A stretch of DNA of 64,000 nucleotides from Gemmatimonadaceae bacterium (lineage in GTDB: Bacteria; Gemmatimonadota; Gemmatimonadetes; Gemmatimonadales; Gemmatimonadaceae). The translations under genes were made by a program, and so were the position numbers. Below, in pieces: positions 3,983 to 17,374 of this stretch. The stretch covers positions 124,001-188,000 of the forward strand of contig JAUQWM010000063.1 in NCBI GenBank assembly GCA_030835125.1, read 5' to 3'. The number at the start of each line of letters is the position of its first letter. The first letter of the stretch is position 1. The notes beneath the pieces were generated by a model. That model was not told the origin of the DNA. It did no database searches and saw nothing but the letters and a program-made list of their open reading frames with translations.

Positions 3983-4052
3983 GGAGAGCAGTAGCCACGC
4001 GATATGGGAAGCCGTCCCGCAATTGAGGATCGGAGCTTCAATCGTGTTGGTG

Positions 4053-5657
4053 CTAGAGAACTTGTCGGGGAACGTCGAACCTGTCCCGATTCCATTCGGC
4101 AGCATAAACGGCCCTCACCATCTCTCCTCGTACCTGGCAGAAGGTGCAGTCCCGACGCGGCGGTTCTCGCCAAACCACGTTCGAAGCTTGGCGTGCCAGA
4201 TCGGCCAACAGGTCAATCTGCAGCACGTTGTCGAGGTTGGCCGGGGGCTTCGCCGCCCAAGCACTATGCGCCTTAGTGAGTTCTGCGGCAGCGATCACGC
4301 CAGCCAGAATTGAGGCAAACCCGACTGATGCTGCCGGTGGTAGCGACGGGTTTGCGAAACGCACTCGCAAATCGCCAAGCACGCCGCAAAGGGCTTCGCC
4401 GATCGATGCGCGGCGTTGAAGATCCGCCGCTATGCTCGGCACTCGCTGTCCTAGGGTCAGCGCTAAGCTGGGGGTAAGCGAATGCTGCCCGTTCCATCGA
4501 CCAGTGTCCACCACTTCTGGAGCCAGCCCCAGTAACTGAGCAGCCTCTGCGACTCCGAGCATGCGTTGTTCCGTTCCCGGCGCTCGGTCAGGATGCCGGC
4601 AGATTAGGCAAGACCGGCCGTCCACACCGTTGTGACGCGAGACGACCAGGGAAGAGTCGTGGGTCGCTGCCTGATAGAGGACCTGCGGTAGTGCCTCCTG
4701 CATTATATGTCGAGAGTTGTTGTTGTCGACCGTCGAGACTAACACACGGGTAGGTGCGGACGTTGCACTCCAGCGGCGCAGTCGCGGTGTGATTGTCACT
4801 GCCGTTCCGACAAAGCTCCGCGCAATTAGCTCAACCTTCAACTCGTTGATGTCACGAGGCCGCGCTAGAAGACAACGATTCAGGCTCGTAGTGTCGATAC
4901 GATCGTCGTCCCACCAGGTTAGCGTGCCGGACACTCTAGGACAGTGCGCCAGCGCCCATGCGACTCCGTTGGCAACAGCGCCGCCTCCAACTACATCGAT
5001 CCCCTCAAATGGCGCGATCGCAACCGGCTCAGGGTATGTACGCGCGTTGGCAGGTTCCAAGGCGAGCGAGAGGTCCCAGAGGTCGAGAGTCACATCGGAT
5101 GGATCGCTTCCGAGGAGGGGAACAGGCGCGTCGGCAGCGGTTCTAATCAAGGCACGAAATACTCCAGCCGCGGCCAGGCAGGCGGCGCCCAACGCACCGA
5201 ACGGCCACGCGGAGACGGACACGGGCCGTGGCCCTGTCATTGAGAGCATACCCTGCCATGCAGTCGAACCGACAAACAGGTCGCCTTGTTGGGCGCGCTC
5301 GAACCCTTGGCCTATCACACAAACGACATCAGCATCCTTTGGGTCGTCAATCATCCACGATACGACTTGGCGGCAAGTAGCGGACTCCCACGTTAGTGAC
5401 GAGCACAGACGGTTGAGCCGCGCCTTCACATCACGTGACGGATCGGAGTCGACGCCAATGATCGTCTCGGCGACTGTGCGAGCGACGAGCTGCACCAATG
5501 TCTTGAGCAGGGTCCAGCCATTAGCCTGCCCAGCAACCGACGCACTGATGCGCACGACCACACGTGCACGAAAGAGGCGCGCCCGTGGCTTCTCGTCGGC
5601 CACAAGCGCCTGAATCGCCTCGAGCCTCGACGTCCGGTCATCCCGATCCGCGTTCAC
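4053..5657 (-). CDS. E1-like ubiquitin-activating enzyme (ThiF/MoeB fold), last gene of a Ubl operon
   Basis: 534 residues from a GTG at 5657 that overlaps the JAB stop as GTGA; a GTG at 5681 is the alternative. The adenylation domain starts near residue 220 with a Rossmann glycine motif (DVVGGGAVANGVAWAL), then WDDDRIDTTSLNRCLL, which matches the Asp and Asn-Arg signature of E1/ThiF/MoeB enzymes. Two CxxC pairs (CLIC mid-protein, CTFC near the C terminus) probably bind zinc. The first 200 residues contain a second, degenerate Rossmann-like segment (FGALGAACLAAAGVF), as in two-lobed E1 proteins of bacterial Ubl pathways. Predicted role: ATP-dependent adenylation of the Ubl C terminus and transfer to E2. 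Which cysteine forms the thioester is not clear from sequence. Confidence 0.85.
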   Translation of the reverse strand: MNADRDDRTSRLEAIQALVADEKPRARLFRARVVVRISASVAGQANGWTLLKTLVQLVARTVAETIIGVDSDPSRDVKARLNRLCSSLTWESATCRQVVSWMIDDPKDADVVCVIGQGFERAQQGDLFVGSTAWQGMLSMTGPRPVSVSAWPFGALGAACLAAAGVFRALIRTAADAPVPLLGSDPSDVTLDLWDLSLALEPANARTYPEPVAIAPFEGIDVVGGGAVANGVAWALAHCPRVSGTLTWWDDDRIDTTSLNRCLLARPRDINELKVELIARSFVGTAVTITPRLRRWSATSAPTRVLVSTVDNNNSRHIMQEALPQVLYQAATHDSSLVVSRHNGVDGRSCLICRHPDRAPGTEQRMLGVAEAAQLLGLAPEVVDTGRWNGQHSLTPSLALTLGQRVPSIAADLQRRASIGEALCGVLGDLRVRFANPSLPPAASVGFASILAGVIAAAELTKAHSAWAAKPPANLDNVLQIDLLADLARQASNVVWREPPRRDCTFCQVRGEMVRAVYAAEWNRDRFDVPRQVL

Positions 5658-6196
5658 CGCCCCTCCAGAGCGTCGGCCCACCGGTGTGATCCCATGATCA
5701 CGGCTTCGGACTCGATGATTCGCAGCCGTGCCTCAGTCTCCTTAGCGGTCCACCGCCGCCATCGACCGGCCTGGATTTCGTGAATGCCCCATTCCGTCGC
5801 TGGTGGAGGCGCACCTTGGCAGAAATGTGGCCACACGATCGAGAGAAACCCGTCGTCACATGCAATCGGCTCATCGTCATCGACGTGTGAGTGGTCCACC
5901 CAGGCGCCGGGATGCGAATGCACCTGGGCGAGCGCGATCTGTCCTTGGGCCCCACGAAGCCACTGCCCTAAAGCGGCAATGGTCATCGGTCCGACCGAAA
6001 TCCCCCCGGTGCGATGATACGCACCTTCGCCGACCGGCGAGACGATGCTGAAAACCACGCCCTCGTCGGCGAAGCAGCGTCCGCCCCAGACAACCTCGCT
6101 TTCAACCCGCGCTCGGCCTTCGGCCCGCAGCAGCTGCCAGCTACGCTCCAGCAACGTGCGAGGCAGCCACAACCTCGTGAGAGCGGCGGGAATCAT
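5654..6196 (-). CDS. JAB/MPN (JAMM) metallo-isopeptidase of the Ubl operon
   Basis: 180 residues. The complete JAMM zinc motif is visible: H93-S-H95, seven residues, S103, two residues, D106 (HSHPGAWVDHSHVD), with an upstream glutamate candidate at E34. These residues coordinate zinc and the catalytic water in Rpn11, AMSH and the prokaryotic JAB peptidases of Ubl systems. Predicted role is to trim the Ubl precursor or remove Ubl from targets. Its start overlaps the E2 stop (ATGA) and its end overlaps the E1 start (GTGA), so all three should be made together. The Ubl here already ends in glycine, so deconjugation seems more likely than maturation; that is inference. Confidence 0.88.
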   Translation of the reverse strand: MIPAALTRLWLPRTLLERSWQLLRAEGRARVESEVVWGGRCFADEGVVFSIVSPVGEGAYHRTGGISVGPMTIAALGQWLRGAQGQIALAQVHSHPGAWVDHSHVDDDEPIACDDGFLSIVWPHFCQGAPPPATEWGIHEIQAGRWRRWTAKETEARLRIIESEAVIMGSHRWADALEGR

Positions 6197-6660
6197 GACG
6201 CCGCCCGCATCTGAGTGCGCTGTGGAACGTCACGGCCGTTAAGGATCTCCAGCAGGCTCGCCACGACGCCAGCTAACGGGCGTATCGGATGCACCGGAGC
6301 GAGATCCCGCCATTCCGCGTGATGCTGCACCCCTTCGCGCGTCGCCGGCGTGCAGACCCAGCCCGTCGGACCGTTAGCCGGCGGGCGCTTGAAGAAACTC
6401 TCCGGGCCCGTTGGCCAATCCGCGAAGTCCCCCTCTGCCTTCGACACCACATTGCAGAACACCACGCTCGGTGGTCCCGCGGCGAGGGACTCTCCGTAGT
6501 CGTACCGAAGACAGTACGTATCTCCGGTCCGATGCTGTCGGGCCCAATGGTAAACACGAAGGGTGCCGTCAACATGCTCGAACAGCGACTCGTCGACGGC
6601 ATCAGAGGCAAGACGAGCGACGTCGGCGGCGAGTATCCTTAGATCCAGCGCGCTTGGCAT
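6193..6660 (-). CDS. E2-like ubiquitin-conjugating protein (diverged)
   Basis: 155 residues, no close family recognised by eye, but the layout matches the UBC fold. There is an N-terminal helical region, beta strands ending in GPPSVVFCNVV (about 62-72), a proline-rich loop, then GWVC103, a tryptophan at 117 (HHAEW) and a C-terminal helix PIRPLAGVVASLLEILN. Canonical E2s show G-x-I/V-C followed by a Trp and a helix of the same kind, so C103 is the likely thioester cysteine. The position between Ubl and JAB, before E1, supports the call: it starts 3 nt after the Ubl stop. The classical HPN tripeptide is absent. I infer function mainly from synteny plus the G-W-V-C motif. Confidence 0.7.
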   Translation of the reverse strand: MPSALDLRILAADVARLASDAVDESLFEHVDGTLRVYHWARQHRTGDTYCLRYDYGESLAAGPPSVVFCNVVSKAEGDFADWPTGPESFFKRPPANGPTGWVCTPATREGVQHHAEWRDLAPVHPIRPLAGVVASLLEILNGRDVPQRTQMRAAS

Positions 6661-6663
6661 AGT

Positions 6664-7008
6664 TTAGCCCGCGCGGTGCTCGACACTGAGGCGAAGCCGC
6701 GCCTCACGCGTGTACCCGAGCTGCCCGAGGGTATTCTTCTCGTCTTCGGGCCCGTACGGAGCATGTGTGCGCTCGTCGACAAGAAAGAAGCGCTGATCGG
6801 GTTGCGGATGGATACGGAACTCCCGCATGGCCCAGTCCTTGACGTCGCCGAGCTGCGTGCTCGACGGAAATCTCTTATCGATCGGCTTGTCGGTTCGGTG
6901 ATAGTCGACGCGGACATGGACGAGATGCGCGTCGTCCATATCGGGACGATCGGGATGCTTCGCCTCGTCGTTCGGGGCTTTGGGCGGCGACGTCTGCTGT
7001 GTGGTCAT
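6664..7008 (-). CDS. Ubiquitin-like modifier (beta-grasp protein ending in glycine)
   Basis: 114 residues. A disordered, proline- and charge-rich tail of about 25 residues precedes a beta-grasp-like core: VHVRVDYHRTDKPIDKRF (strand-turn-strand), a helix LGDVKDWAMREF, then strands RFFLVD and a final LRLSVEHRAG. The protein ends exactly on a glycine, as a mature conjugatable Ubl should. Ubiquitin ends RGG; here it is RAG. The gene opens the tight run Ubl-E2-JAB-E1, the order expected for a bacterial ubiquitination-like pathway. Predicted role: the protein tag that E1 activates. Fold assignment is by pattern and context, not by similarity search. No strong ribosome site is visible upstream. Confidence 0.72.
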   Translation of the reverse strand: MTTQQTSPPKAPNDEAKHPDRPDMDDAHLVHVRVDYHRTDKPIDKRFPSSTQLGDVKDWAMREFRIHPQPDQRFFLVDERTHAPYGPEDEKNTLGQLGYTREARLRLSVEHRAG

Positions 7009-7088
7009 GGCGATCGAGTCCGGGTGATGGATGCGAGAGGCTGTGCCTCTCCTTCACCAGAAGAACGCCGAACGCCCCCGTCCCCTCC

Positions 7089-7625
7089 TCAGGGCAGCAG
7101 CCGCAGATCCATGACACGCCACCACATCGCCTGCAACGACACGCGGAACTGGATTGCGAGCGCGTCGACGTCAAGGCGGCGCCCTTGTGCACGCACTGCC
7201 TCTCGAACCATAGCCGCTGGCATCAACAGCGCGGAGGCAAACGCGTTTGCCTCTTGCTCATGTGGTGGGAGCTTCAAGCTGTGCTGAGATGGATCCTCTT
7301 CCATCGTGTCGTCCAAGAACTCGATGATGTCACGTTCATGGTGCCGCAGGCACCAATGACCCACTTCATGCGCTACAGTAAAGCGCTCGCGGGTCGCTCG
7401 TCCGTCGCGTGTATTCACGACGATCAGCTGCTGTTCGGGGATCAGCTGACCTAGCGGCCCGTTGGCCTTCGTGATCCGCAGGACTTGTAGGCCGAGTCGC
7501 TCTGCAATTCCCTCGACATCCACGGGCGGCGTAGTAACTGCGTGAACTCGCAGGACTCGCTCCGCTTCCGCATGCGCGATTGTAAAGCTTGGGCCGGCTG
7601 ACGCCCCTTCGGCTCCGTGGCGCAT
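7089..7625 (-). CDS. ImmA/IrrE-family zinc metallopeptidase
   Basis: 178 residues. The zinc signature FTVAHEVGHWCLRHHE is at about 83-98 (H86, E87, H90), followed by HEQEANAFASALLMP, whose glutamate is the usual third ligand. This is the DUF955/ImmA fold. Known members (ImmA of ICEBs1, IrrE of Deinococcus) cut helix-turn-helix repressors and so switch on mobile-element or stress genes. It starts 6 nt after the stop of the HTH protein at 7632-8336, the standard repressor/peptidase pairing. It lies upstream of the Ubl operon and probably shares its transcript, so it may control induction of the pathway. That regulatory role is inference. Confidence 0.9.
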   Translation of the reverse strand: MRHGAEGASAGPSFTIAHAEAERVLRVHAVTTPPVDVEGIAERLGLQVLRITKANGPLGQLIPEQQLIVVNTRDGRATRERFTVAHEVGHWCLRHHERDIIEFLDDTMEEDPSQHSLKLPPHEQEANAFASALLMPAAMVREAVRAQGRRLDVDALAIQFRVSLQAMWWRVMDLRLLP

Positions 7626-7631
7626 TGCGCG

Positions 7632-8336
7632 TTAACAATCCCGCCGGGGCTGTGTTTCTGCTGGCCCTTCCAGGTCAGCAAACTGCTGAAAAAACGGCCT
7701 ATAAGCCGCGACTAGCTCGGCACGCACGGCATCCGCATCGAACGGCTCGCTCGCCACGTCACCGGCATCTCGAAACATCCCGCCCCCCGTTGACCCTGCG
7801 AGCCGTGGTGACCGCGCCGCGATCTCCACCTGACTCGCCATGCGCAGAAGTCGAACTAGCGCCTTGAGTGAGACCTCAACCATGACGGCAAATCGCTCCA
7901 CGTGCAGGCGCTTGAGACTGAACCACGGCTTACGGCCAGTCTCAAGTGCCGTGAGCTCAAGGTCGCTGACCTCAAGAGCGCGCGCGGCCGTCGATCGGTC
8001 CACGCGCGCCAGTGCACGCCCGGCACCAAGCACAGTGCCACCTGGCAGAAACCACGCGCCGATCATCGGCGTAGCACCCGCACTTTCAACGGCAATCTGT
8101 CGCTGGCGTTCGAACCGAGCGACTTCATCGGAAGTTACGGAGCCAGGCGGTATCACGTCCGCGAGTGCGGCCCAGCCGGTCTCCTCCACGGTCTCAAGCC
8201 AGAGCTCCGCAAACTCCGGATGCGCCGCAAACCAAGACTGAAGAGCGGCCGGATCCATTTGGAGGTCGGGAAGGTCGGCATCGAACTGCTCAAGCGCCTC
8301 GCGCAAGAGGCGACGGCTTTCCTCCGGGTTCGTCAT
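7632..8336 (-). CDS. Helix-turn-helix protein, probable repressor partner of ImmA
   Basis: 234 residues, no full-length family recognised. The middle (about 100-165) resembles an XRE-type helix-turn-helix: LGAGRALARVDRSTAARAL then VSDLELTALETGRKPW, followed by an amphipathic helix. The N terminus is acidic and helical (SRRLLREALEQFDADLPDL); the C terminus looks disordered. It begins 16 nt after the sigma-factor gene and ends 6 nt before immA. Such HTH/ImmA pairs work as a repressor and its protease. Because it follows a sigma factor directly, an alternative role is anti-sigma or co-regulator. DNA binding is inferred from the HTH pattern alone. Confidence 0.6.
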   Translation of the reverse strand: MTNPEESRRLLREALEQFDADLPDLQMDPAALQSWFAAHPEFAELWLETVEETGWAALADVIPPGSVTSDEVARFERQRQIAVESAGATPMIGAWFLPGGTVLGAGRALARVDRSTAARALEVSDLELTALETGRKPWFSLKRLHVERFAVMVEVSLKALVRLLRMASQVEIAARSPRLAGSTGGGMFRDAGDVASEPFDADAVRAELVAAYRPFFQQFADLEGPAETQPRRDC

Positions 8337-8352
8337 TCTAGAAATCCTCTCT

Positions 8353-9087
8353 CTATTGAAAGCTTACATCGCGTGTCGGGTGCGCCTTCCCGACTTCCCA
8401 CAGATCCGGCTGGAGGCGGGCGTGTCGGATGAGAAACTCCTCGGCCTTCTCCAAGCAACGGCGTACGATCAAGGTCGAGACTCCCAGGGCGGTTGCTATT
8501 TCCAGATTCGTCTTTCCCATGAACTTCAAGGCGAGAACGTCCCGTTGACGCGGGTTCCGCAACTGCAGGCTCATGAGCCACTGGAGCCGCTTGGCACGCA
8601 GGTGCTCCCTCGACGAGTCCTGCGTTTCCGCGTTAGCCGGCCCGTCGAGCATGTCCTCTGAAGTGGGCTCAGCGTCGGCGCTGCCGTGCACACTCACATC
8701 TCGTTCAAACTCTGCTTGCCTCGCTTCCAGGCAATCGAGTACGAAGTTTCTGAGCACTACCATCGTGTACCCAAACAGGGAGCCAGATCCGGACCCGGGT
8801 GTCCACCTAGCCAGCGCCGCAGGCAACTTGGTGACGAAGCATTCATGAATCCATTCCTCGTGCTCTGCCGAGTGCGAGGAAAACCGAGCGGCGAGAAGAC
8901 CCTTCAACTTCGGGACTACTCGCTCGTAGAACGCGCGCCACGCCCGCCCGCTGACACCGGGGTCCGTCGACAACATATCCCGCACCAACTCGACGTCGTC
9001 GAGTTGGTGCGTGGGTCCTTCGTAGGATGCCGGAACAGTCACACTCAGCTCCGATCGAACCAGATGGTGGCGCACTCGGACGTGCAC
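8353..9087 (-). CDS. ECF-like RNA polymerase sigma factor
   Basis: About 244 residues from GTG 9087; a TTG at 9117 preceded by AGGTGG is the alternative, and anything further upstream would run into the protease gene. Sigma region 2 is visible in EWIHECFVTKLPAALARWTP plus GSLFGYTMVVLRNFVLDCLE. Region 4 lies near the C terminus (LRNPRQRDVLALKFMGKTN then LEIATALGVSTLIVRRCLE), separated by an acidic linker. It would direct polymerase to a dedicated set of promoters, perhaps those of the surrounding island. The gene sits between the subtilisin-like protease and the HTH/ImmA/Ubl genes on the same strand. No recognisable anti-sigma gene is beside it unless the next HTH protein serves that role. Confidence 0.8.
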   Translation of the reverse strand: MHVRVRHHLVRSELSVTVPASYEGPTHQLDDVELVRDMLSTDPGVSGRAWRAFYERVVPKLKGLLAARFSSHSAEHEEWIHECFVTKLPAALARWTPGSGSGSLFGYTMVVLRNFVLDCLEARQAEFERDVSVHGSADAEPTSEDMLDGPANAETQDSSREHLRAKRLQWLMSLQLRNPRQRDVLALKFMGKTNLEIATALGVSTLIVRRCLEKAEEFLIRHARLQPDLWEVGKAHPTRDVSFQ

Positions 9088-9158
9088 CTCTGAAACAGGA
9101 ACGGTGCGCGCCCCCAACTGCCGGAGCCACCTGATGTAACCCCATAGCGTTCCATCGC

Positions 9159-11336
9159 TTACACGCGAATGCGAGCTGCCGCGCGCAACGGTCGCAGGGT
9201 CTGGCGAAAACGCCGCCGCACGCCAACCTGCCACTCGGTATCTCCAACGCGTGTTGTGGTAACTACGCACGCGTATGGAATGGGATCGTGCGATGACGTG
9301 TCAGCGCCGCGCTTTCGCCGGAGGGGATGAATCCAGACTTCGGGAAGCGATAAAGCCTTGCGAAATCGCTTTTCAGCGTGGACGACTGTTTCCCACTTCA
9401 TCAGGTGGCGTCGCGCGATCCGTTCGGGCACCATCTCATGTTGGTGCTTGGAAAAGAATGCCTGATGTTCGAACTCGGGACCTCGCCCAACCCGCTGTGT
9501 GACCATCTTGAAACTCACTTCGGCGCCGGCCTGAGTATAGTGCGCCGCATTTGACGGCTCGATCGGCGACGCAATGCAGAGAGTCACTCGGACGTGCACT
9601 CCGGTACGTGCGTCGGAAGGGGTTGGCACCTTGAGACGCGTCACGAGCTTGAGTGGAAGGTGCCCCGCGTAGACAACACGGGCGCCGTCGTCACCGGTGG
9701 TCAGGTAGTGATCGAGATCTTCCGGCAATCGGCCCCATCCAACGTGATCCCGCGGTCCTGCGTCGGAAACGGCACCGTGCAGCATGAGTGCGCGCGCCAG
9801 AAGCCACCGATTGGGAATCGCACCCAACGAGAGCCCCAGCGCTGCGCCAAGGCGCAGCGCAAATGGCGAAGCGTAGCTCGTTCCCTGACCCGGCCGAAGG
9901 GCAACCGCCGGCGCCGCATCAACCAATAGGAATGGCTCGTCAGCAGACCCTCCGAACGCTGCGACGTCAGGCTTCCGCCGTCCTGGGTACCGGCCAGGCC
10001 CCAGACACGAGTAGTCCGCACGGGCGAAGGGCGCTGCTCGAGTAGCGATGGCTCCCACCGCCATCGCGTTGACTGCGTCGCTCGGAGGCTGAATACGCGG
10101 AGCCGCCGACCTTCCGGCGTTACCGACCGCAATGGCGACCAGACGGTCCCCACGACTCGACGCCTCATCCACTGTGGCCGTCCACGGATCGACTATTTCG
10201 TCTACAACTGGGCTCGGGGCGCCGATGCTTAGGCAGACTAGCGGATGCTTCCATCTCTTCAGGATCGCCTGGAGTCGGGTCGCCGCCGTAACGGAGTCGA
10301 GGACCGCATGTTCCGTTATCCGGATCACATCAGCACCGACGGGAGGCGGTGCGACGGCGGCGCGTCCATCCAGCGGCCCGAATAGGAATGCGCTCGCGAC
10401 CCAGGTCCCGTGTCGCACGCCAAGCGGATCCAACGCCGGGCCAACACCCTCAGCGTCGTGAACAGCCACGTAGGGTCGCATTGGCTCGGGAGGAGCACAG
10501 CCACCGTCAATGATCAGAGCGCGCGCGTCACGATGCTGGACCGGCGCTGACGGCCAGTTCACTTCGTGAACAGATCGCGGACGTCCGGAGTAATCTGTAC
10601 GAACGTCGTCGTCAAATCGCACCGCGCGCAACGAGCGGAGTGCGCGTAGGAATGCGAAAGCAGCTAGCGAATGAAAGCGCGTGGGATCGCCCTCGAGAGC
10701 CAGGAACCGATAGGCACCAGTAGTAACGCGCGACATAACACGCCCGCCGACGGCCTCTACCAGCGCGATGAACTGAGCTTCGGCTAGTTGCCGAATCCTC
10801 TGGGTCACTTGAAGAACGGCTTCTGTTCGGTCAGGAAGCGCAGAAGGATCCAAGGGTCGAATCCGATCCATTGGCGACTCCAGCGCGAACGACTCGACGT
10901 GGAGTAGCTGCTGGCCAGCCTTCATCTCGTCGGTGAGTTCCCCGAGACGCCTCGGTGCGCTGTACCACGCGGCTCGGGTGCCTGACACGAATAGCGTGAC
11001 GGCGAATTCACCTCTGGTGGGATCGGCTTGGTCGTCCCGTGGCAGTCGATCAACACGACTGCCAATTGACTCCAGTTCCAGGTAGCGCAGCAAACTGCTG
11101 GGATAGTGAGACCGCGCGATGTATTCCGGCCGGAGAGTCAGAAGTCCGACAGCAGAGTCACCAGGCGTAAACGTCTGCGGCAGGCGGTCGATACCAGCAG
11201 CGACAGTTTGAATCTTCGCGACCAACGGTGGACGCCAGTCATCCAAGCGGTCCCGATAGACAATCGGGCGGCTCGAATTCGGAGGGCGCGCCTCGCGAAG
11301 CTCATCACCGTTGCCCAGAAGAAAGTGCTTTGCCAT
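9159..11336 (-). CDS. Subtilisin-like serine protease (peptidase S8), IetS-like
   Basis: 725 residues without a signal peptide, so probably cytoplasmic. The S8 catalytic residues are all present: D277 in ALIIDGGC, H309 in VRHGTWVAS, oxyanion N406 in AVGNAG and S487 in GQGTSYASP. About 270 residues of uncharacterised N-terminal sequence precede the protease and about 190 follow it. The gene lies downstream of an AAA+ ATPase on the same strand. An AAA+ ATPase plus S8 protease of these sizes is the IetAS pair, known as a plasmid-incompatibility locus in Agrobacterium and reported as anti-phage. Predicted role: ATPase-controlled proteolysis triggered by infection. The trigger and substrate are unknown. 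Confidence 0.9.
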   Translation of the reverse strand: MAKHFLLGNGDELREARPPNSSRPIVYRDRLDDWRPPLVAKIQTVAAGIDRLPQTFTPGDSAVGLLTLRPEYIARSHYPSSLLRYLELESIGSRVDRLPRDDQADPTRGEFAVTLFVSGTRAAWYSAPRRLGELTDEMKAGQQLLHVESFALESPMDRIRPLDPSALPDRTEAVLQVTQRIRQLAEAQFIALVEAVGGRVMSRVTTGAYRFLALEGDPTRFHSLAAFAFLRALRSLRAVRFDDDVRTDYSGRPRSVHEVNWPSAPVQHRDARALIIDGGCAPPEPMRPYVAVHDAEGVGPALDPLGVRHGTWVASAFLFGPLDGRAAVAPPPVGADVIRITEHAVLDSVTAATRLQAILKRWKHPLVCLSIGAPSPVVDEIVDPWTATVDEASSRGDRLVAIAVGNAGRSAAPRIQPPSDAVNAMAVGAIATRAAPFARADYSCLGPGRYPGRRKPDVAAFGGSADEPFLLVDAAPAVALRPGQGTSYASPFALRLGAALGLSLGAIPNRWLLARALMLHGAVSDAGPRDHVGWGRLPEDLDHYLTTGDDGARVVYAGHLPLKLVTRLKVPTPSDARTGVHVRVTLCIASPIEPSNAAHYTQAGAEVSFKMVTQRVGRGPEFEHQAFFSKHQHEMVPERIARRHLMKWETVVHAEKRFRKALSLPEVWIHPLRRKRGADTSSHDPIPYACVVTTTRVGDTEWQVGVRRRFRQTLRPLRAAARIRV

Positions 11337-11478
11337 TTGTGTATGCGATGCGGTCGCGTGGCCCGTTACTCAAAGAACGGAACCCGCCCCCGTTGCCAAT
11401 CGTACCGGCCCGCGCGCGCCGAATAGGGGGCTTTGCGCGAATCGCTGCAGCCAATGTCCGGCTGTGATAACAGTCGCC

Positions 11479-12624
11479 CTATAAAGCGCTCTCCGTTCCC
11501 CGCGGGCGACCAGGATGGTTTCGGAGAATGGCTGGCAAGTAGCCACGCACCGCACTCGCGCTCCACCCGGTCTGCGCGCATATCTCACGCTGAGTGAACC
11601 CTAGAATCGCCAGACTCCGAGCGACACCGGGTCGCTCGAGCCGACTAAGATCAGCCAGATGCGTCGCGAGCTGTTCGACTAGAACGCTCTCCAGCGGACG
11701 ACCATGAACAACCGCACGTCGACGTGCGCCGTCAATGAACCGCTCCAGGTCATGGAAGGAGGCACCGTTGAACGCCGCCGCAACAAGCGTTGCCGCTTCG
11801 CGAGCACACGAACCCGTTAGGAGCCGCACGGCAAGTGCTTCGCGTTGTATCACATCGGGCAGCGGAAACGCCACGTGGACCGCAAAGCGACGCCAGAGCG
11901 CTGGATCCAAGAGATCTGGATGATTTGTGGCAGCAATCAGGAGACTATCGGTCGGCCAACGGTCTAGTTGTTGCAAGAGTACGGTGACCAACCGCTTGAG
12001 CTCGCCCACTTCTTGTTCATCGCTGCGCCGCTTTGCTAGGGCATCGACCTCGTCGAGGAAGACGACACATGACGTTCCGCGCGCATACTCGAATGCCGCA
12101 CGAATGTTCGCACCAGTCTTGCCCAAATAAGAGTTCATGACCGCAGCAAGATCGAGCGTGAGAAGCGGTCGCCTCATGCGCGCCGCCAGCCACCGAGCCG
12201 CGAGCGTCTTCCCGACGCCTGGTGGACCTTGAAACAGAAGCGTGTTGGCTGGAGTGAGTCCGTTTCGGGCGAGAGTCTCGGAGGCCGCTTGCTCACGATA
12301 GACCTGATCCAACTCTGCCGCGATCTGAGGAGAGAGAATCGGATCCGACAATTCCCCAAAGGACAATTCCACATCGAATAACTGAAACTGCGAATCTCCA
12401 TCCGCCGGCACCGGTTGCCCACCTTGGTGCGTTAGGGGGAATGCCGGATTCGGAGACTGCGCGAGGAGGCTCGCCAAGGACTCGCGTAATTCCGGATTCA
12501 TCGCCGCATTCGCGCGTAGGACGCGCCGAAGTAGACGGTCAACTTTCTCCCGCGGACCACTCAAAGCTTCGCGCGCCAGATCGAGAAAGAGATGGTCACT
12601 TACAGTGCGCGTCGGAACTGGCAT
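11479..12624 (-). CDS. AAA+ ATPase, IetA-like partner of the S8 protease
   Basis: 381 residues from ATG 12624, which has AGGA 7 nt upstream; an ATG at 12630 is too close to that site. Walker A GPPGVGKT is at 133-140, Walker B VVFLDEVDAL at about 187-196, sensor-1 AATN and the arginine pair WRR at 244-246. This is a classic AAA ATPase core with a long N-terminal helical region. The C terminus carries a helix-turn-helix-like stretch (LGFTQREICAQTGWSASAV), unusual for a pure remodelling ATPase and suggestive of nucleic-acid sensing. It lies 142 bp upstream of the protease gene, with which it would form an IetAS-like defence pair. Confidence 0.9.
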   Translation of the reverse strand: MPVPTRTVSDHLFLDLAREALSGPREKVDRLLRRVLRANAAMNPELRESLASLLAQSPNPAFPLTHQGGQPVPADGDSQFQLFDVELSFGELSDPILSPQIAAELDQVYREQAASETLARNGLTPANTLLFQGPPGVGKTLAARWLAARMRRPLLTLDLAAVMNSYLGKTGANIRAAFEYARGTSCVVFLDEVDALAKRRSDEQEVGELKRLVTVLLQQLDRWPTDSLLIAATNHPDLLDPALWRRFAVHVAFPLPDVIQREALAVRLLTGSCAREAATLVAAAFNGASFHDLERFIDGARRRAVVHGRPLESVLVEQLATHLADLSRLERPGVARSLAILGFTQREICAQTGWSASAVRGYLPAILRNHPGRPRGTESAL

Positions 12625-12630
12625 ATTCAT

Positions 12631-12997
12631 ATCCTACTGTCCGTCAAGAGGTTACGCTGCCGGCAACGTAAGGCGAGTGCGCCACCGACGAATGTAGCGC
12701 AATTACTTGCGCCACGCGATGGTTGCTGGCCTCTCTAACGGGGCCTGCAGGGCGGCTTTCATTGAGCCGCGACTTCATGCTGCCACCGAGGTCTTCGAGC
12801 TCTCTTTCAACCACCCTCGACGGTGGTCGGCGACGTATCGCCCAAGTGCGCCGCAATTCTTGAGCGTCATCGCGCTGACGCTACGACTGCTGCTTGGAGC
12901 TGGTGGAAGGCGAAAAGCGCCGATCTGACTTCACTCTTGGCGCGAGACTAAGGCGGACGCAGTGTTGCTGTGGCTCGCTCAATGCCTCCGGTTGCGC
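12631..12997 (-). other. 367 bp intergenic region with a small dyad
   Basis: No convincing gene is seen between the NACHT gene and the AAA+ gene, both on the minus strand. A perfect dyad GCGCAA-ttac-TTGCGC occurs at 12697-12712, about 70 bp upstream of the AAA+ start, and could be an operator. The rest shows no terminator with a T-run and no RNA gene. Short open frames here have no recognisable features. Confidence 0.4.
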
Positions 12998-14812
12998 TCA
13001 CTGTGTCGCGTCATCCAACCACATGAGGACGGAGTCTGGCAACGGGACGGCTGGGCGGCGACCTGGTTGCTGGGAATAGTGTCGCGCCAAGAAGAACTCC
13101 TGAAATGCTCGATGCGCAAATCTTATCCGGAGGGGAGCGGGTGCACTTCGAGCGCCTACCGGGAGTAGAAGGCTATTCAAGAATAATCCCGTCGGATCAA
13201 CAATCGACGCGAGACGAGGGTCACAGCCGGTAATGTCCCCTAAGCTACAGCTAGCGAGCAGCGTAATCGTCCCGTCTTTGACATCAACCATTCCGGCGGC
13301 CGCACACTCCATCGCGACGAATGCCAACTCAATTGTGGCGTCCAAGCCCTCGACGCTACTGACGATCGGTGCGCGTCCCTTCGAAGACCATCGTAGCGGA
13401 TTCGTCAGATCCCGGGTGACCTTTAGGCGCGCCCATTCTTCAAACAGTTCAGCGCGACCAACCTTGTGAATGCCTTGATCCGCGACTGTATCTAGAATGA
13501 AGCGGAGGAAAAGTGGCCGTCGCGGAATGTCTCCGTAAACGGATGCGTAGTCGCCCGAAGAAAACAGCTGAAGGAGGTCTCCCAGTCGTTCCCGCGTCGG
13601 TTGATCGGCAATGGCGTCCATTCGCCGCCTCGTCAATTCTACGAGAAGCGCATCCTCCCACGGGAGAAGCTCAATGAGGCGCACGTCGCGACGAAACCAT
13701 CGTTCGCCACGTCCTGTTGCTCCGAACGAGCTCGCGAAATCAGACTGTTTTGATCGCCAAAGCTCGGTTCGCGCCGTTAGTACGACAGGAACCGCAACGT
13801 CGCGGAGCATGTTGAAGAGATGCTGAATTCCACCTCTCCGTGTGAAGAAGACTGATTCATCTATCCCGTCGATGACAAGCACCAGCGGTGTGTCCGTCTG
13901 TTTCAGAACGTTCTCAATCACCGGACGTGCGAATCGTCGAAGTAGCTTACGATCGCTGTCCTCAAACTGCGCCAATACATCGTCGGGATCGATGCACTGC
14001 TCCGCTAAGTCCTTAGCTGCGCGCGTCTCTTTGGAAATCCTAGCCGCGGGAACATACAGAACCTTGGCCGTACCGAACGCCCGGAAGCAAACTGTGGTCT
14101 TTCCAAAGCCAGCCTCACCTATGAGCACTCGCAATTGGCGCGCAGGTTCCCCTACAATGTGCTCCAGTGGGTCTTCAATCCCAGTTCCTATGTGTTCCTC
14201 CGCAATCAGTCTGTGCTGATCCAACTTCAGCACACTCGTTCGGAGCGGGACTTTGGTGAGCAGCTCGGCTTCGTCAAGTGTGTCAGCAGAGCCGTCTGAC
14301 CCCGTCGCAGCTCGCGACGCGACCCAACTGTCAACGAAATCGGCCATTGCATCAAACGTACGGTCGAGCAGAGTGTGGCGATCCCAAAGCTCTGCTCTAT
14401 TGACCACTCCCGCCGCGACCAGACCATCGAGCTCGCCCTGCACCGCACTTCGAAAGTCGGCGTTTCGGCCATCACGATTGTGGATCAACAGGTACGTGTC
14501 CGCGTTATAGCCACTCTCGCGAAACTTCTTGATTGAGTCGAAGCACTGAGCGATCTGACTCTTACCGAGTTCCAAGTCACCGGCTCTAAACCCTTTGCAC
14601 TGTACAACTAGGTCAAACGGGGGCGAGCCGGACCACGCAAAGTGGTCGATGCCCTTCGAATCGAACGACAGCCGCGCAGGGGAACCGACTGCGTTCGGCC
14701 AGGATAGCCTCAGCATTGGCAGGACCAAGCGTTCGAGGTCGCGCTCTTCAGCCGCGAAGACCTTCGCAGCTAAAGGGAAGTAATCGCTCTTGCGTCGCCA
14801 GCTACTCGCCAT
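12998..14812 (-). CDS. Nuclease-NACHT NTPase (bacterial NLR-like defence protein)
   Basis: 604 residues from ATG 14812 (GGAGAG about 12 nt upstream; an upstream ATG at 14890 is possible). The N-terminal 100 residues look like an Mrr-type restriction endonuclease: SKGIDHFAW with D56, then VVQCKGF giving a QxK active site at Q71/K73. The NACHT-type P-loop GEAGFGKTT is at about 232-240 and Walker B VLVIDGIDES at about 312-321. After that comes a helical region ending in RFAHRAFQEFFLARHY, the usual NACHT-associated C-terminal motif. Bacterial NACHT proteins with nuclease effectors act in anti-phage defence: sensing drives oligomerisation and DNA cleavage. Neither trigger nor nuclease activity can be read from sequence. 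Confidence 0.85.
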   Translation of the reverse strand: MASSWRRKSDYFPLAAKVFAAEERDLERLVLPMLRLSWPNAVGSPARLSFDSKGIDHFAWSGSPPFDLVVQCKGFRAGDLELGKSQIAQCFDSIKKFRESGYNADTYLLIHNRDGRNADFRSAVQGELDGLVAAGVVNRAELWDRHTLLDRTFDAMADFVDSWVASRAATGSDGSADTLDEAELLTKVPLRTSVLKLDQHRLIAEEHIGTGIEDPLEHIVGEPARQLRVLIGEAGFGKTTVCFRAFGTAKVLYVPAARISKETRAAKDLAEQCIDPDDVLAQFEDSDRKLLRRFARPVIENVLKQTDTPLVLVIDGIDESVFFTRRGGIQHLFNMLRDVAVPVVLTARTELWRSKQSDFASSFGATGRGERWFRRDVRLIELLPWEDALLVELTRRRMDAIADQPTRERLGDLLQLFSSGDYASVYGDIPRRPLFLRFILDTVADQGIHKVGRAELFEEWARLKVTRDLTNPLRWSSKGRAPIVSSVEGLDATIELAFVAMECAAAGMVDVKDGTITLLASCSLGDITGCDPRLASIVDPTGLFLNSLLLPVGARSAPAPLRIRFAHRAFQEFFLARHYSQQPGRRPAVPLPDSVLMWLDDATQ

Positions 14813-14935
14813 CGTCTCGGTAGACTCTCCAGTCCGCGGTTGCGCATTCGAACATGAGGCTCGTTCGCTACGTTGGAATCGTGTAGGCAAACGCGTCCGA
14901 GCGACGCGTGCGACGGAATCAACTAGCTACGCTAT

Positions 14936-15454
14936 TTAACTCTCATCGACTAGATCGCCCTCATCGGAATACAGCGATCTGGAACTATGCAGCCGAAAGT
15001 ACCGCTTGAAAGCTTCCGACATCGCCGCAGCGACATCCGGCGTGGTTTGAGGAGTATCCAGGAGGGCAAGGACGCGACCATCGTCGTGGTCCGAGCAATG
15101 TGCAACAGCGTTCCGAAATGGCTTTAGTAGATCGAGATACTCGCTAGTGAGGAGGGCACCTAGCTCCTCCGACTGGGGAATCGTGCCGCTGCTTACGAGC
15201 TGTTGGTATCGCTCAATAACCGTGGCCAGGCCCGCGAACCAAGAAAAGACGTAAGCAGCAAAGCGCACCTTCTTCGCCGTTGTGAAATGCTCCACGCCGC
15301 CGGCAGCCAGTACCTCCTGGATCAGAACATCATGGTGAAGCCGGTAGATATCGCAGCGGGCAAGACAGTGGGCAAGAGACACGATGGCCAGCTGACGCCG
15401 CTCGGCCTCAGCGCTCCCGGCGTTTTCAACGCGCGTGCGCTTTCTGTCAGTCAT
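14936..15454 (-). CDS. Small helical protein with HEPN-like RNxxxH motif
   Basis: 172 residues, not assignable to a named family by eye. It is predicted mostly helical and contains KPFRNAVAHCSDH (R114-N-x-x-x-H119), the R-x4-H signature of HEPN ribonucleases and ribose-transfer antitoxin targets. It sits 123 bp upstream of the nuclease-NACHT gene on the same strand, at the edge of the island. It could be a HEPN effector or sensor working with the NACHT protein, or an independent HEPN-type toxin. No MNT nucleotidyltransferase gene is adjacent. The motif could also occur by chance in a helical hypothetical protein. Confidence 0.5.
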   Translation of the reverse strand: MTDRKRTRVENAGSAEAERRQLAIVSLAHCLARCDIYRLHHDVLIQEVLAAGGVEHFTTAKKVRFAAYVFSWFAGLATVIERYQQLVSSGTIPQSEELGALLTSEYLDLLKPFRNAVAHCSDHDDGRVLALLDTPQTTPDVAAAMSEAFKRYFRLHSSRSLYSDEGDLVDES

Positions 15455-15806
15455 GGAGGTTGCGTCCTAGCGTCGCTGACCGGCTGGCCGATTTGCCGCG
15501 AGAATGGGGATTCACGTATCTGGTCCGCCCATCTGACGTGGTGGCTCGTTTCCTAGAAACAACATGACGAGGATCGAGCTCGCAGGGAAGAATTCTGCGG
15601 CTGCACCACTATGTGAGCAGACGCAACAATTGGTGAAGCGCCCGATCCTCATCGCGGGCTCTGCGCAACTGGCTCTGTCAAATGGACCAAATGCTCGATC
15701 CCGTCGCCGTATTTAGATTGATCCTGCTTGACAGTTGAGACGACGACAGTCAAGGTACCCGCGGAGCGGCGGCCCCGTGTCCACCACAGGGAGAAGGGGC
15801 TTGGCT
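15455..15806. other. Island boundary region, no gene seen
   Basis: This 352 bp gap separates the minus-strand island from a plus-strand HD-GYP gene. No tRNA, integrase remnant or obvious att direct repeat is visible. A TTGACA at 15728-15733 could serve as a -35 for the downstream gene, but no convincing -10 follows. Confidence 0.4.
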
Positions 15807-17374
15807 GTGGCAGCAATCCGACGCGCCGACTTCATGATCGCGCTGGCGTACGCCACCGACCTGGCCACCGGTCAGTCGCGCGAGTTCGCGCTCCGATCCT
15901 GCGTGCTCGCCATGCGCCTCGCGGACACCGCGGGCCTCGATGTCGAGCAGCGCCGCAACGTCTACCACCAAGCCCTGCTCCGCTACATCGGATGCAATGC
16001 GGACACCCACCTGCTGGCAGCCGCCTTTGGCGATGAGATCGCGCTCCGCCAGGACGTCGCCCGCATCGACCTCGGCTCGCACTCCGAACTCGGCGAGGTG
16101 TTCGTTCGCGCCTTCAGGCGGGTCTTCGCCGACCTGCCACCCGACCAGCTGGCGATGGCTGTACAGCAGGGCCTCACAGACGCGCTGCAGGTGACCGTCC
16201 CGATCCTGGCAGGCCATTGCGAGGTGGCGCAGCGGATCGGCATGCGCATCGGCCTCTCCGAAGAGATGCGCGAGAACCTCGGCCAGCTCTACGAACGCTG
16301 GGACGGGCATGGCCTGCCGCGGGGACTTAAAGGAGCAGAAGGCCGGTTCGCCGTGCGCATGGTGACGCTGGCGCAGGACGCGATCACCCTCGAGGAAGCG
16401 CATGGCTTCGAGGCGATGACCGCGATCATCACGAAGCGCCGCGGCGGCGCGTACGAGCCGGAACTCGCGGATCTCTTCCTGGCGAACGCGCAGCGCCTGC
16501 TCAAGGGACTCGACCAGCCAGTCGGCCGCGAGACCATCCTGGCAATCGAACCCGCACCGCACGCCGTACTCGACGAAGCGGCCTGCGAGGAAGCCTACCT
16601 GGCCATCGCCGACATGGTCAACATGCGCATGCCCTTCACCTTCGGCCATTCGCGCGCGGTGGCGCAGTTGGCCGATGCGGCGGGCAGGCACGTGGGGCTC
16701 CCCGCGTCGGAGGTCCGCGATCTCCGCTGGGCGGCATACACGCACGACATCGGCGAGCTGGCGGTGCCGGTGTCCACCTGGATGCAGCCGCGCGAGCTGA
16801 ACATTCGTGAGACCGACGCCGCTCGGCTCCATCCCTACCATGGTGAACGGGCGCTCGCGTCCTTGGGTGGAGACGGCAGCCCCGTCGCGCAACTGGTCAT
16901 GCGGCATCACGAGCGACTCGACGGCAGCGGCTATCATCGCTGCGTGCGGGCCCCTGACCTGTCCCCAGCTGCCCGCATTCTTGCCGCGGCCGAGGCCTTC
17001 CAGACCGCCAGGGAGAAGCGGCCCTACCGCCCTGCCCTGAGCGATGCGGCGGCAGCCATCAAGCTTCGGAACGAAGTCCGAGAAGGAAGCTGGACGCCGA
17101 GGCGGTGGAGGCTGTCCTGACCGCCGCCGGTCAGGCGTCACGCAGGACCGTCGAACGACCCACGGGACTCACCCCACGGGAAATGGACGTCCTGCGCCTG
17201 ATCGCGGCCGGGAGTACGGCGAAGGAAGCGGCCCGCCTGCTCGACATCGCCCCCAAGACGGCCGACCACCACATCCAGAACCTCTACTCCAAGATCGGCG
17301 TCACCACCCGCGCCGCCGCCGCGCTGTACGCGCTCGAGCGGGGCTTGATCCAGATGGGGACATCGGCCGCTTAG
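15807..17374 (+). pseudogene. HD-GYP phosphohydrolase / LuxR-type HTH fusion, broken by a frameshift
   Basis: The first part (GTG 15807, with GGGAGAAGG upstream, to a stop at 17120) encodes an HD-domain protein: YTHDIGELAVP, HPYHGERAL and HHERLDGSGYH, with LSPAARILAAAEAFQ after it. These match HD-GYP cyclic-di-GMP phosphodiesterases, with GYH in place of GYP. A LuxR-type HTH (LTPREMDVLRLIAAGSTAKE and following) then continues in another frame to 17374. The two frames join if one base is restored near 17088-17096: the read frame ends in a stray EGSWTPRRW run, whereas the shifted frame gives KLDAEAVEAVLTAAG leading straight into the HTH. So a single 1-nt deletion, or a sequencing error, splits an ordinary HD-GYP/LuxR fusion. 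If real, the HTH is lost. Confidence 0.75.

What the first reader, a model, noticed from the sequence alone, without database searches (positions are those of the whole stretch)
4053..9117. Complete ubiquitin-like pathway with its own sigma factor and HTH/ImmA switch
Seen: on one strand, in order, sigma factor, HTH protein, ImmA-type peptidase, Ubl ending in Gly, G-x-x-C E2-like protein, JAMM peptidase and two-lobed E1, with 1-4 nt overlaps or tiny gaps from Ubl to E1. Known: bacterial Ubl pathways (Bil, Bub and type II CBASS) have Ubl/E2/E1/JAB sets, but I know of none that carries a sigma factor and an HTH/ImmA pair in the same run. Inference: an inducible conjugation pathway that is kept off by the HTH protein and released by ImmA under stress or infection.
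Basis: partly seen in the sequence, partly recalled or inferred. Interest (0 to 1): 0.93.

Follow-up and report, generated by a model that had tools for sequence, protein, structure and literature searches.

The report
Sigma-factor-switched bacterial ubiquitin-like defence operon
A soil bacterium carries a known kind of ubiquitin-like anti-phage operon (Bil) behind an unusual three-gene switch (sigma factor, regulator, protease); switches of the same layout sit beside several immune systems in other bacteria, which points to an undescribed way of turning bacterial immunity on.

Summary
The seven genes are real, in the order claimed, on the minus strand of a Gemmatimonadota genome. Ubl, E2-like, JAMM and E1 form a divergent type II Bil operon: the E1 alone matches the solved BilD (1.5e-24) and all catalytic residues are conserved. 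The conjugation pathway is therefore known. The HTH/ImmA pair resembles CapH+CapP, already reported beside CBASS and Bub operons, so it is not new as a class either. The sigma factor is the new element. It is a genuine ECF-type sigma, 16 nt before the HTH gene. Sigma-X-ImmA triads of the same layout occur beside Bil, Bub, CBASS and Pycsar operons in Proteobacteria, co-directionally upstream of a NurA/HerA operon in Chloroflexota and Cyanobacteria, and in a looser form before a Bil operon in another Gemmatimonadota genome. In the proteobacterial triads, 14 of 20 intergenic regions carry two facing promoter-like copies (TGTCCGA, 16-17 nt, GCATA) with equal spacers, so the sigma probably reads both its own genes and the immune operon. 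The window lacks this motif, and its ImmA falls outside that clade, so its control is inferred by analogy. No held paper describes such a switch. Verdict: new variant of a known kind, with an apparently undescribed controller.

The parts
8353..9042 (-). ECF-type sigma factor (ORF open to 9270; likely start GTG 9042 with GGAG upstream; alternatives 9075, 9117)
   Evidence: TIGR02937 2.9e-10 over the full model; hhalign to ECF sigma profile 98.6%, 6.9e-16; start judged from sequence
8981..9011 (.). Perfect 15-bp inverted repeat with 1-nt centre, inside the 5' end of the sigma gene; unique in the genome; possible operator or mRNA hairpin
   Evidence: RNA fold z = -3.0; 0.01 expected in the window
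7632..8336 (-). Middle gene of the switch: 234-aa protein with a weak XRE-type HTH at residues about 98-160 and about 95 unclassified residues before it; no close relatives found
   Evidence: Pfam HTH_31 E 0.22; hhalign register; no relatives; structure model useless, pLDDT 45
7089..7625 (-). ImmA/IrrE-type M78 metallopeptidase (HEVGH), CapP-like
   Evidence: PF06114 3.7e-16; PADLOC capP 1.2e-29; PDB 8slm, 3dte, 7t5t CapP
7009..7088 (-). 80-nt gap between switch and pathway, with a 7-bp perfect inverted repeat at 7035-7051 (GAGAGGC-ACA-GCCTCTC); candidate internal promoter/operator
6664..7008 (-). Ubiquitin-like protein (BilA-type), single Ubl domain, C-terminal glycine
   Evidence: PADLOC BilA 2.4e-7; alignment with BilA relatives; profile hits PDB BilA 6.2e-27
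6193..6660 (-). E2-like protein (BilB-type, shortened), catalytic Cys103
   Evidence: PF24702 2.3e-5, below cut-off; profile hits PDB BilB 3.6e-38; Cys103 invariant in 16 sequences; low-confidence model whose nearest folds are mostly UBC E2s
5654..6196 (-). JAMM/MPN deconjugase (BilC-type)
   Evidence: PADLOC BilC 7.3e-12; E32, HSH 93-95, S103, D106 invariant; profile hits PDB BilC 6.1e-49
4053..5657 (-). Two-lobed E1 (BilD-type): inactive adenylation domain, ThiF domain, invariant C350/C353, C424 and C507
   Evidence: PDB 8tyz BilD 1.5e-24 with this protein alone; PF14459 and PF00899; alignment
9159..11336 (-). IetS-like S8 subtilase upstream on the same strand (neighbour, possibly co-transcribed)
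   Evidence: PADLOC IetS 5.9e-25
11479..12630 (-). IetA-like AAA ATPase (neighbour)
   Evidence: PADLOC IetA 1.6e-76
12998..14890 (-). NACHT/AAA-like NTPase (neighbour)
   Evidence: weak Pfam AAA_22 and NACHT hits, below cut-off

Best explanation
This is a type II Bil (bacterial ISG15-like) anti-phage operon whose expression is set by a three-gene switch directly upstream. SHOWN from sequence: a BilA/B/C/D-type set with conserved catalytic residues; an ECF-type sigma, a middle protein and a CapP-like M78 peptidase in one tight cluster; the same sigma-X-ImmA layout beside immune and Ubl operons elsewhere, where promoter-like sites are shared between the triad and the immune operon. INFERRED: the middle protein holds the switch off, either as a CapH-like DNA-binding repressor or as an anti-sigma of this sigma. 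On a stress or infection signal (by analogy with CapP and IrrE, single-stranded DNA from damage) ImmA cleaves it. The sigma factor then directs RNA polymerase to its own promoter and to the Bil operon, giving a self-reinforcing burst of Ubl, E2, JAMM and E1, which conjugate Ubl to phage structural proteins as the characterised Bil does (the last point from general knowledge of Bil).
For: Bil identity. CapP-like ImmA. Recurrence of sigma-X-ImmA beside immune/Ubl operons: Bil (L113, L115; L108 has sigma and X but no ImmA called), Bub/multiubiquitin (L195, L206; L209 with an unnamed third gene), CBASS (L193, L196, L207, L208), Pycsar cyclase with E2 (L188). Same co-directional layout as the window: L221 (Chloroflexota), whose ImmA is 35% identical to the window's, and L223. 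Looser form upstream of Bil in the same bacterial family: L031. Shared facing promoters: 18/20 sigma side, 15/20 neighbour side, 14 both, against shuffle means 0.17, 0.2 and 0.005; spacers equal in 14/14. Window cluster gaps of 16 and 6 nt.
Against: The window has no copy of the triad promoter motif. Its ImmA lies outside the proteobacterial triad clade (99/99) and is nearest an ordinary CapP-like one (L033). Its sigma and middle protein show no specific similarity to those of the other triads. The HTH assignment is weak. An IetAS pair lies just upstream on the same strand and could be the sigma's partner. Of about 28 other ImmA loci in the phylum none has an adjacent sigma. Most Bil operons found, the rhizobial ones including Ensifer aridi, have neither sigma nor ImmA. 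There is no transcript or phage data.
Confidence: 0.68

Rival explanations
1. Only HTH/ImmA (a CapH+CapP pair) controls Bil; the sigma belongs to the upstream IetAS operon or is an unrelated ECF gene that landed there.
For: CapH+CapP control is established for CBASS and reported for Bub (PMC13373217). The window ImmA is CapP-like and nearest the ImmA of L033, which has HTH+ImmA and no sigma. The window sigma has no specific kinship to other triad sigmas.
Against: Sigma sits 16 nt from the HTH gene but at least 83 nt from IetS (for the 9075 start). Sigma-X-ImmA is a recurrent layout in several phyla.
Confidence: 0.2
2. Variant of the best explanation: the middle protein is an anti-sigma rather than a DNA-binding repressor; ImmA frees the sigma by cutting it.
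For: In the proteobacterial, Chloroflexota and cyanobacterial triads X has no recognisable HTH, and in L031 the middle gene starts with a zf-HC2 motif resembling ChrR-type anti-sigmas.
Against: The window's middle protein has a weak XRE-like HTH and no zf-HC2. No interaction data.
Confidence: 0.4
3. Sigma/HTH/ImmA and Bil are unrelated neighbours in a defence island, with no regulatory link.
For: 80-nt gap before Ubl; IetAS and a NACHT-like gene adjoin; no shared promoter found in the window.
Against: Co-directional; HTH/ImmA or sigma-X-ImmA recurs beside Bil in Gemmatimonadota, Acidobacteriota, Bacteroidota and Proteobacteria, and triads found by sigma similarity alone lie beside known immune/Ubl systems in 8 of 17 plasmid loci.
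Confidence: 0.1

Closest known systems
Type II Bil (BilABCD), Ensifer aridi; structures 8TYX-8TZ0
   Same: Gene order Ubl-E2-JAMM-E1; E1 lobes, catalytic Cys, JAMM triad and zinc cysteines conserved; the window E1 alone finds BilD
   Different: 25-30% identity; shortened E2; Ubl ends in a single Gly with no extension; upstream sigma/HTH/ImmA, which the rhizobial Bil operons examined lack
CapH+CapP (immune-operon repressor plus M78 peptidase)
   Same: HTH-type gene followed by a CapP-like M78 peptidase directly before an immune operon
   Different: An ECF sigma precedes them; the HTH protein is longer (234 aa) with an unclassified N-terminal half and only a weak HTH
CapK+CapS (GHKL kinase plus STAS-wHTH), reported beside Bub, Bil and CBASS
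   Same: Gene pair upstream of immune operons; built from parts of a sigma-regulation system
   Different: No sigma factor in that system; kinase instead of protease
IrrE/PprI-DdrO and ImmA-ImmR
   Same: M78 peptidase paired with an HTH protein, cleaved on DNA damage
   Different: Not tied to a sigma factor or a Ubl operon (from general knowledge)
Sigma-X-ImmA triads next to CBASS/Bub/Pycsar
   Same: Three-gene layout and association with immune/Ubl operons
   Different: Proteobacterial triads are divergent, share the TGTCCGA/GCATA promoter and an X of about 130 aa; the window's triad is co-directional and not of that clade

Membership tests
Bil (type II BilABCD) | Ubl-E2-JAMM-E1 order in one operon | tested here: met
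Bil (type II BilABCD) | E1 homologous to BilD, with two lobes and catalytic/zinc cysteines | tested here: met
   1.5e-24; C350, C353, C424, C507 invariant
Bil (type II BilABCD) | E2 homologous to BilB with catalytic Cys | tested here: met
   profile 3.6e-38 to BilB; Cys103 invariant. The protein alone finds no PDB hit and the model is low confidence
Bil (type II BilABCD) | JAMM motif E...HxH...SxxD | tested here: met
Bil (type II BilABCD) | BilA-type beta-grasp Ubl with C-terminal Gly | tested here: met
   PADLOC BilA 2.4e-7; fold not predicted separately
Bil (type II BilABCD) | Conjugation to phage proteins, anti-phage activity | not testable with these tools
   needs experiment
CapH+CapP | M78 peptidase of CapP type | tested here: met
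   PADLOC capP 1.2e-29; PDB CapP 6e-5
CapH+CapP | Partner with XRE-type HTH that is cleaved | tested here: inconclusive
   HTH_31 E 0.22; hhalign register only; cleavage not testable
CapH+CapP | Adjacent immune operon | tested here: met
   Bil 80 nt downstream
Sigma-X-ImmA triads (proteobacterial clade) | ImmA inside the triad clade | tested here: not met
   triad clade 99/99 excludes the window ImmA
Sigma-X-ImmA triads (proteobacterial clade) | Facing TGTCCGA-16/17-GCATA promoters | tested here: not met
   none with up to 2 mismatches in window 4001-16000
Sigma-X-ImmA layout in general | Sigma, middle gene, M78 peptidase in tight order next to an immune-type operon | tested here: met
   parallels L221, L223
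Bub (multiubiquitin/DUF6527) | Multiubiquitin fused to Prok-E2_E, DUF6527 | tested here: not met
   no such domains in the window proteins

The most novel reading that the evidence does not exclude
Sigma-X-ImmA is a general, so far undescribed class of immune-operon controller: an alternative sigma factor held by a protease-sensitive partner and released by an M78 peptidase, with the sigma transcribing both its own genes and the adjacent Bil, Bub, CBASS or Pycsar operon through matched divergent promoters. The window shows a co-directional form of it in front of a Bil operon.
Probability: 0.6. Interest if true: 0.87.

Novelty: new variant of a known kind. Interest (0 to 1): 0.77.

Why it matters
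How bacteria keep costly immune operons silent and switch them on is an open question. The controllers described in the paper read here (CapW/BrxR, CapH+CapP, CapK+CapS) are repressors. A dedicated sigma factor would be positive control: a protease cut converts damage sensing into a burst of transcription from matched promoters, with built-in feedback. Because one triad sits beside a CBASS operon in the laboratory strain Cereibacter sphaeroides 2.4.1, the idea is directly testable. It would also give an immediate signature (sigma, small gene, ImmA, TGTCCGA/GCATA promoter pair) for finding further immune operons.

Tried and rejected
Rfam and tRNA scans of the window: nothing. Window HTH and sigma: no relatives on plasmids or viral contigs (131, 132); in the phylum only general ECF sigmas and marginal HTH hits. 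Structure: E2 model pLDDT 56, best Foldseek E 0.33 but nearly all top hits are UBC-type E2s; HTH model pLDDT 45, unusable. The triad promoter was sought in the window and L031: nothing in the window, only scattered 2-mismatch hits in L031. A repeated sigma-type promoter pair inside the window was sought by pairwise dyad search: 49 loose pairs, none convincing and no control run. Sigma-70 promoter and terminator scan: chance level. Idea that the window triad is simply a member of the proteobacterial triad clade: rejected. L031 as a true sigma: only its region-4-like C-terminus is supported, so it is called sigma-like. Literature: CapH/CapP and CapK/CapS found; no paper describing sigma-X-ImmA in the held library; Chambers 2024, Lau 2022 and two Burroughs/Aravind papers are not held, so prior description there is not excluded.
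Full report
WHAT IS THERE. The window (minus strand) holds, in transcription order, a NACHT-like gene, IetA, IetS, a sigma factor, an HTH-type gene, an ImmA-type peptidase, a Ubl, an E2-like protein, a JAMM peptidase and an E1. The host is in the same family as Gemmatimonadetes bacterium 2013_60CM_65_52 (L031 lies on the same 622,937-bp contig as L046), so it belongs to the Gemmatimonadota. Gaps: IetS 83 nt (to the 9075 start) sigma 16 nt HTH 6 nt ImmA 80 nt Ubl 3 nt E2, then 4-nt overlaps to JAMM and E1.

THE PATHWAY IS BIL. PADLOC gives BilC for the JAMM (7.3e-12) and BilA for the Ubl (2.4e-7). The E1 alone finds the solved BilD, PDB 8TYZ, at 1.5e-24 and nothing else. With Gemmatimonadota relatives added, the profiles find BilD (1.5e-139), BilB (3.6e-38), BilC (6.1e-49) and BilA (6.2e-27); these profile scores lean on the relatives, some of which are closer to Ensifer aridi Bil than the window is. 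Catalytic residues are invariant: E1 Gly-rich loop, Cys350/353/424/507; E2 Cys103; JAMM Glu32, His93/95, Ser103, Asp106. An AlphaFold model of the E2 is poor (pLDDT 56), yet the Foldseek list is headed by UBC E2s at non-significant E-values.

THE HTH/ImmA PAIR IS OF THE CapH+CapP KIND. The peptidase scores 1.2e-29 against PADLOC CapP and finds IrrE and CapP structures. The partner's HTH is weak, but an XRE alignment falls on the right register. Of 80 genome-contig loci with type II-like E1, the many rhizobial ones have no regulator. Outside that group an ImmA gene, usually with an HTH gene or HTH domain, flanks Bil in Gemmatimonadota (L033, L034, L035), Blastocatellia (L047), a Meiothermus bin (L107) and Bacteroidota (L117, L120, L123). 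PMC13373217 reports that 219 of 544 Bub operons carry CapW or CapH+CapP, and that CapK+CapS flanks Bub, Bil and CBASS. So this half of the finding is a known theme.

THE SIGMA FACTOR IS THE NEW PART. It is a real ECF-type sigma. Next to Bil operons the same sigma, middle gene, ImmA order appears in Sphingomonas formosensis (L113) and Bradyrhizobium nanningense (L115); B. nitroreducens (L108) has sigma and X with no ImmA called. Searching plasmids with these sigma proteins alone returned 17 loci used in the promoter analysis (L188-L198, L200, L201, L206-L209). The gene next to the triad is CBASS CD-NTase in L193, L196, L207 and L208 (in some after a short gene), a Pycsar cyclase with an E2 protein in L188 (1e-232), multiubiquitin plus ThiF (Bub-type) in L195, L206 and L209, a PADLOC candidate subtilase in L189 and L194, a PADLOC 'beta' protein in L200, and a ThiF/patatin operon in L198. 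Thus 8 of 17 lie beside a known immune or Ubl system and 12 of 17 when candidates are counted; the rest have short unknown genes. L189 lacks a called ImmA and the third gene of L209 is unnamed. Two triads outside Proteobacteria, Ca. Chlorohelix (L221) and Aulosira (L223), are co-directional like the window's. All five of their genes are homologous pairwise (29-47% identity), and they precede a NurA/HerA-type pair. L221 was reached from the window's own ImmA, 35% identical with a shared C-terminal tail. In L031, in the window's own family, Bil is preceded by a sigma-region-4-like protein, a zf-HC2 protein and an ImmA.

SHARED PROMOTERS. The regions between triad and neighbour carry facing TGTCCGA words, each followed 16-17 nt outward by GCATA-like words. 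With up to 2 mismatches of 12, the pair occurs on the sigma side in 18/20, on the neighbour side in 15/20, and on both in 14/20; dinucleotide shuffles give 0.17, 0.2 and 0.005. The gap between facing words varies from 6 to 25 nt, but the spacer is identical on both sides in all 14 loci, which fits two promoters read by one sigma better than one palindromic operator. Matches with at most 1 mismatch: 25 in 231 kb of plasmid triad loci, nearly all in that intergenic region, against 22 in 1310 kb of other loci. Caveat: the words were chosen after looking at these sequences, and some loci are related.

WHAT IS NOT SHOWN FOR THE WINDOW. The motif is absent there, the triad ImmA clade excludes its ImmA, and its sigma and middle protein are not specifically similar to those of other triads. 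The window is therefore a parallel or strongly diverged instance. A perfect 31-nt inverted repeat (15-bp arms) within the sigma 5' end, unique in the genome, may be the operator or an mRNA hairpin.

MECHANISM AND VERDICT. Most likely: the middle protein holds sigma activity or transcription off, ImmA removes it on infection or damage, and the sigma then amplifies itself and the Bil operon. Bil identity is close to certain; a regulatory link of the switch to Bil is probable; whether the middle protein is repressor or anti-sigma is open. Held papers describe no sigma-X-ImmA switch, but key papers are not held. Novelty: new variant of a known kind; the general triad, if confirmed, would be a new class of immune controller.

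Noticed in passing
L188-L198, L200, L201, L206-L209; L108, L113, L115: Facing TGTCCGA-16/17-GCATA promoter-like pairs between sigma-X-ImmA triads and their neighbour operon, with equal spacers on both sides in 14 of 14 loci.
   Followed up: yes
window 8981-9011: Perfect 15-bp inverted repeat with a 1-nt centre inside the 5' end of the sigma gene, with no other copy in the genome.
   Followed up: partly
window 9159-14890: IetA/IetS anti-phage pair and a NACHT-like gene directly upstream on the same strand: a defence island between two PadR/permease gene pairs.
   Followed up: partly
L032:7514-8377 (and E2-labelled ORFs of L117, L120, L122, L123): Ubl and E2 fused in one ORF (DUF2604 plus Metal_CEHH in L032), a natural BilA-BilB fusion.
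   Followed up: no
L046:8576-8878: The Ubl has a C-terminal extension of about 15 residues after its Gly, suggesting processing by the JAMM peptidase, unlike the window Ubl.
   Followed up: no
L034:8027-10321, L035:9131-11388, L163: Another regulator set beside Bil in Gemmatimonadota: RHH, a 210-aa unknown, HTH and ImmA; the same set occurs in L163, where no Bil gene was seen in the short locus.
   Followed up: no
L199, L204: A triad-type sigma directly followed by a helicase-related gene and a large unknown gene, without X or ImmA.
   Followed up: no
L142, L144: Further Gemmatimonadota HTH+ImmA pairs divergent from short genes that look like Ubl and E2-like proteins by eye.
   Followed up: no
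L112:2407-3324, L114:7346-8356: Proteins of WYL/CapW appearance (by eye) divergent from Bil operons.
   Followed up: no
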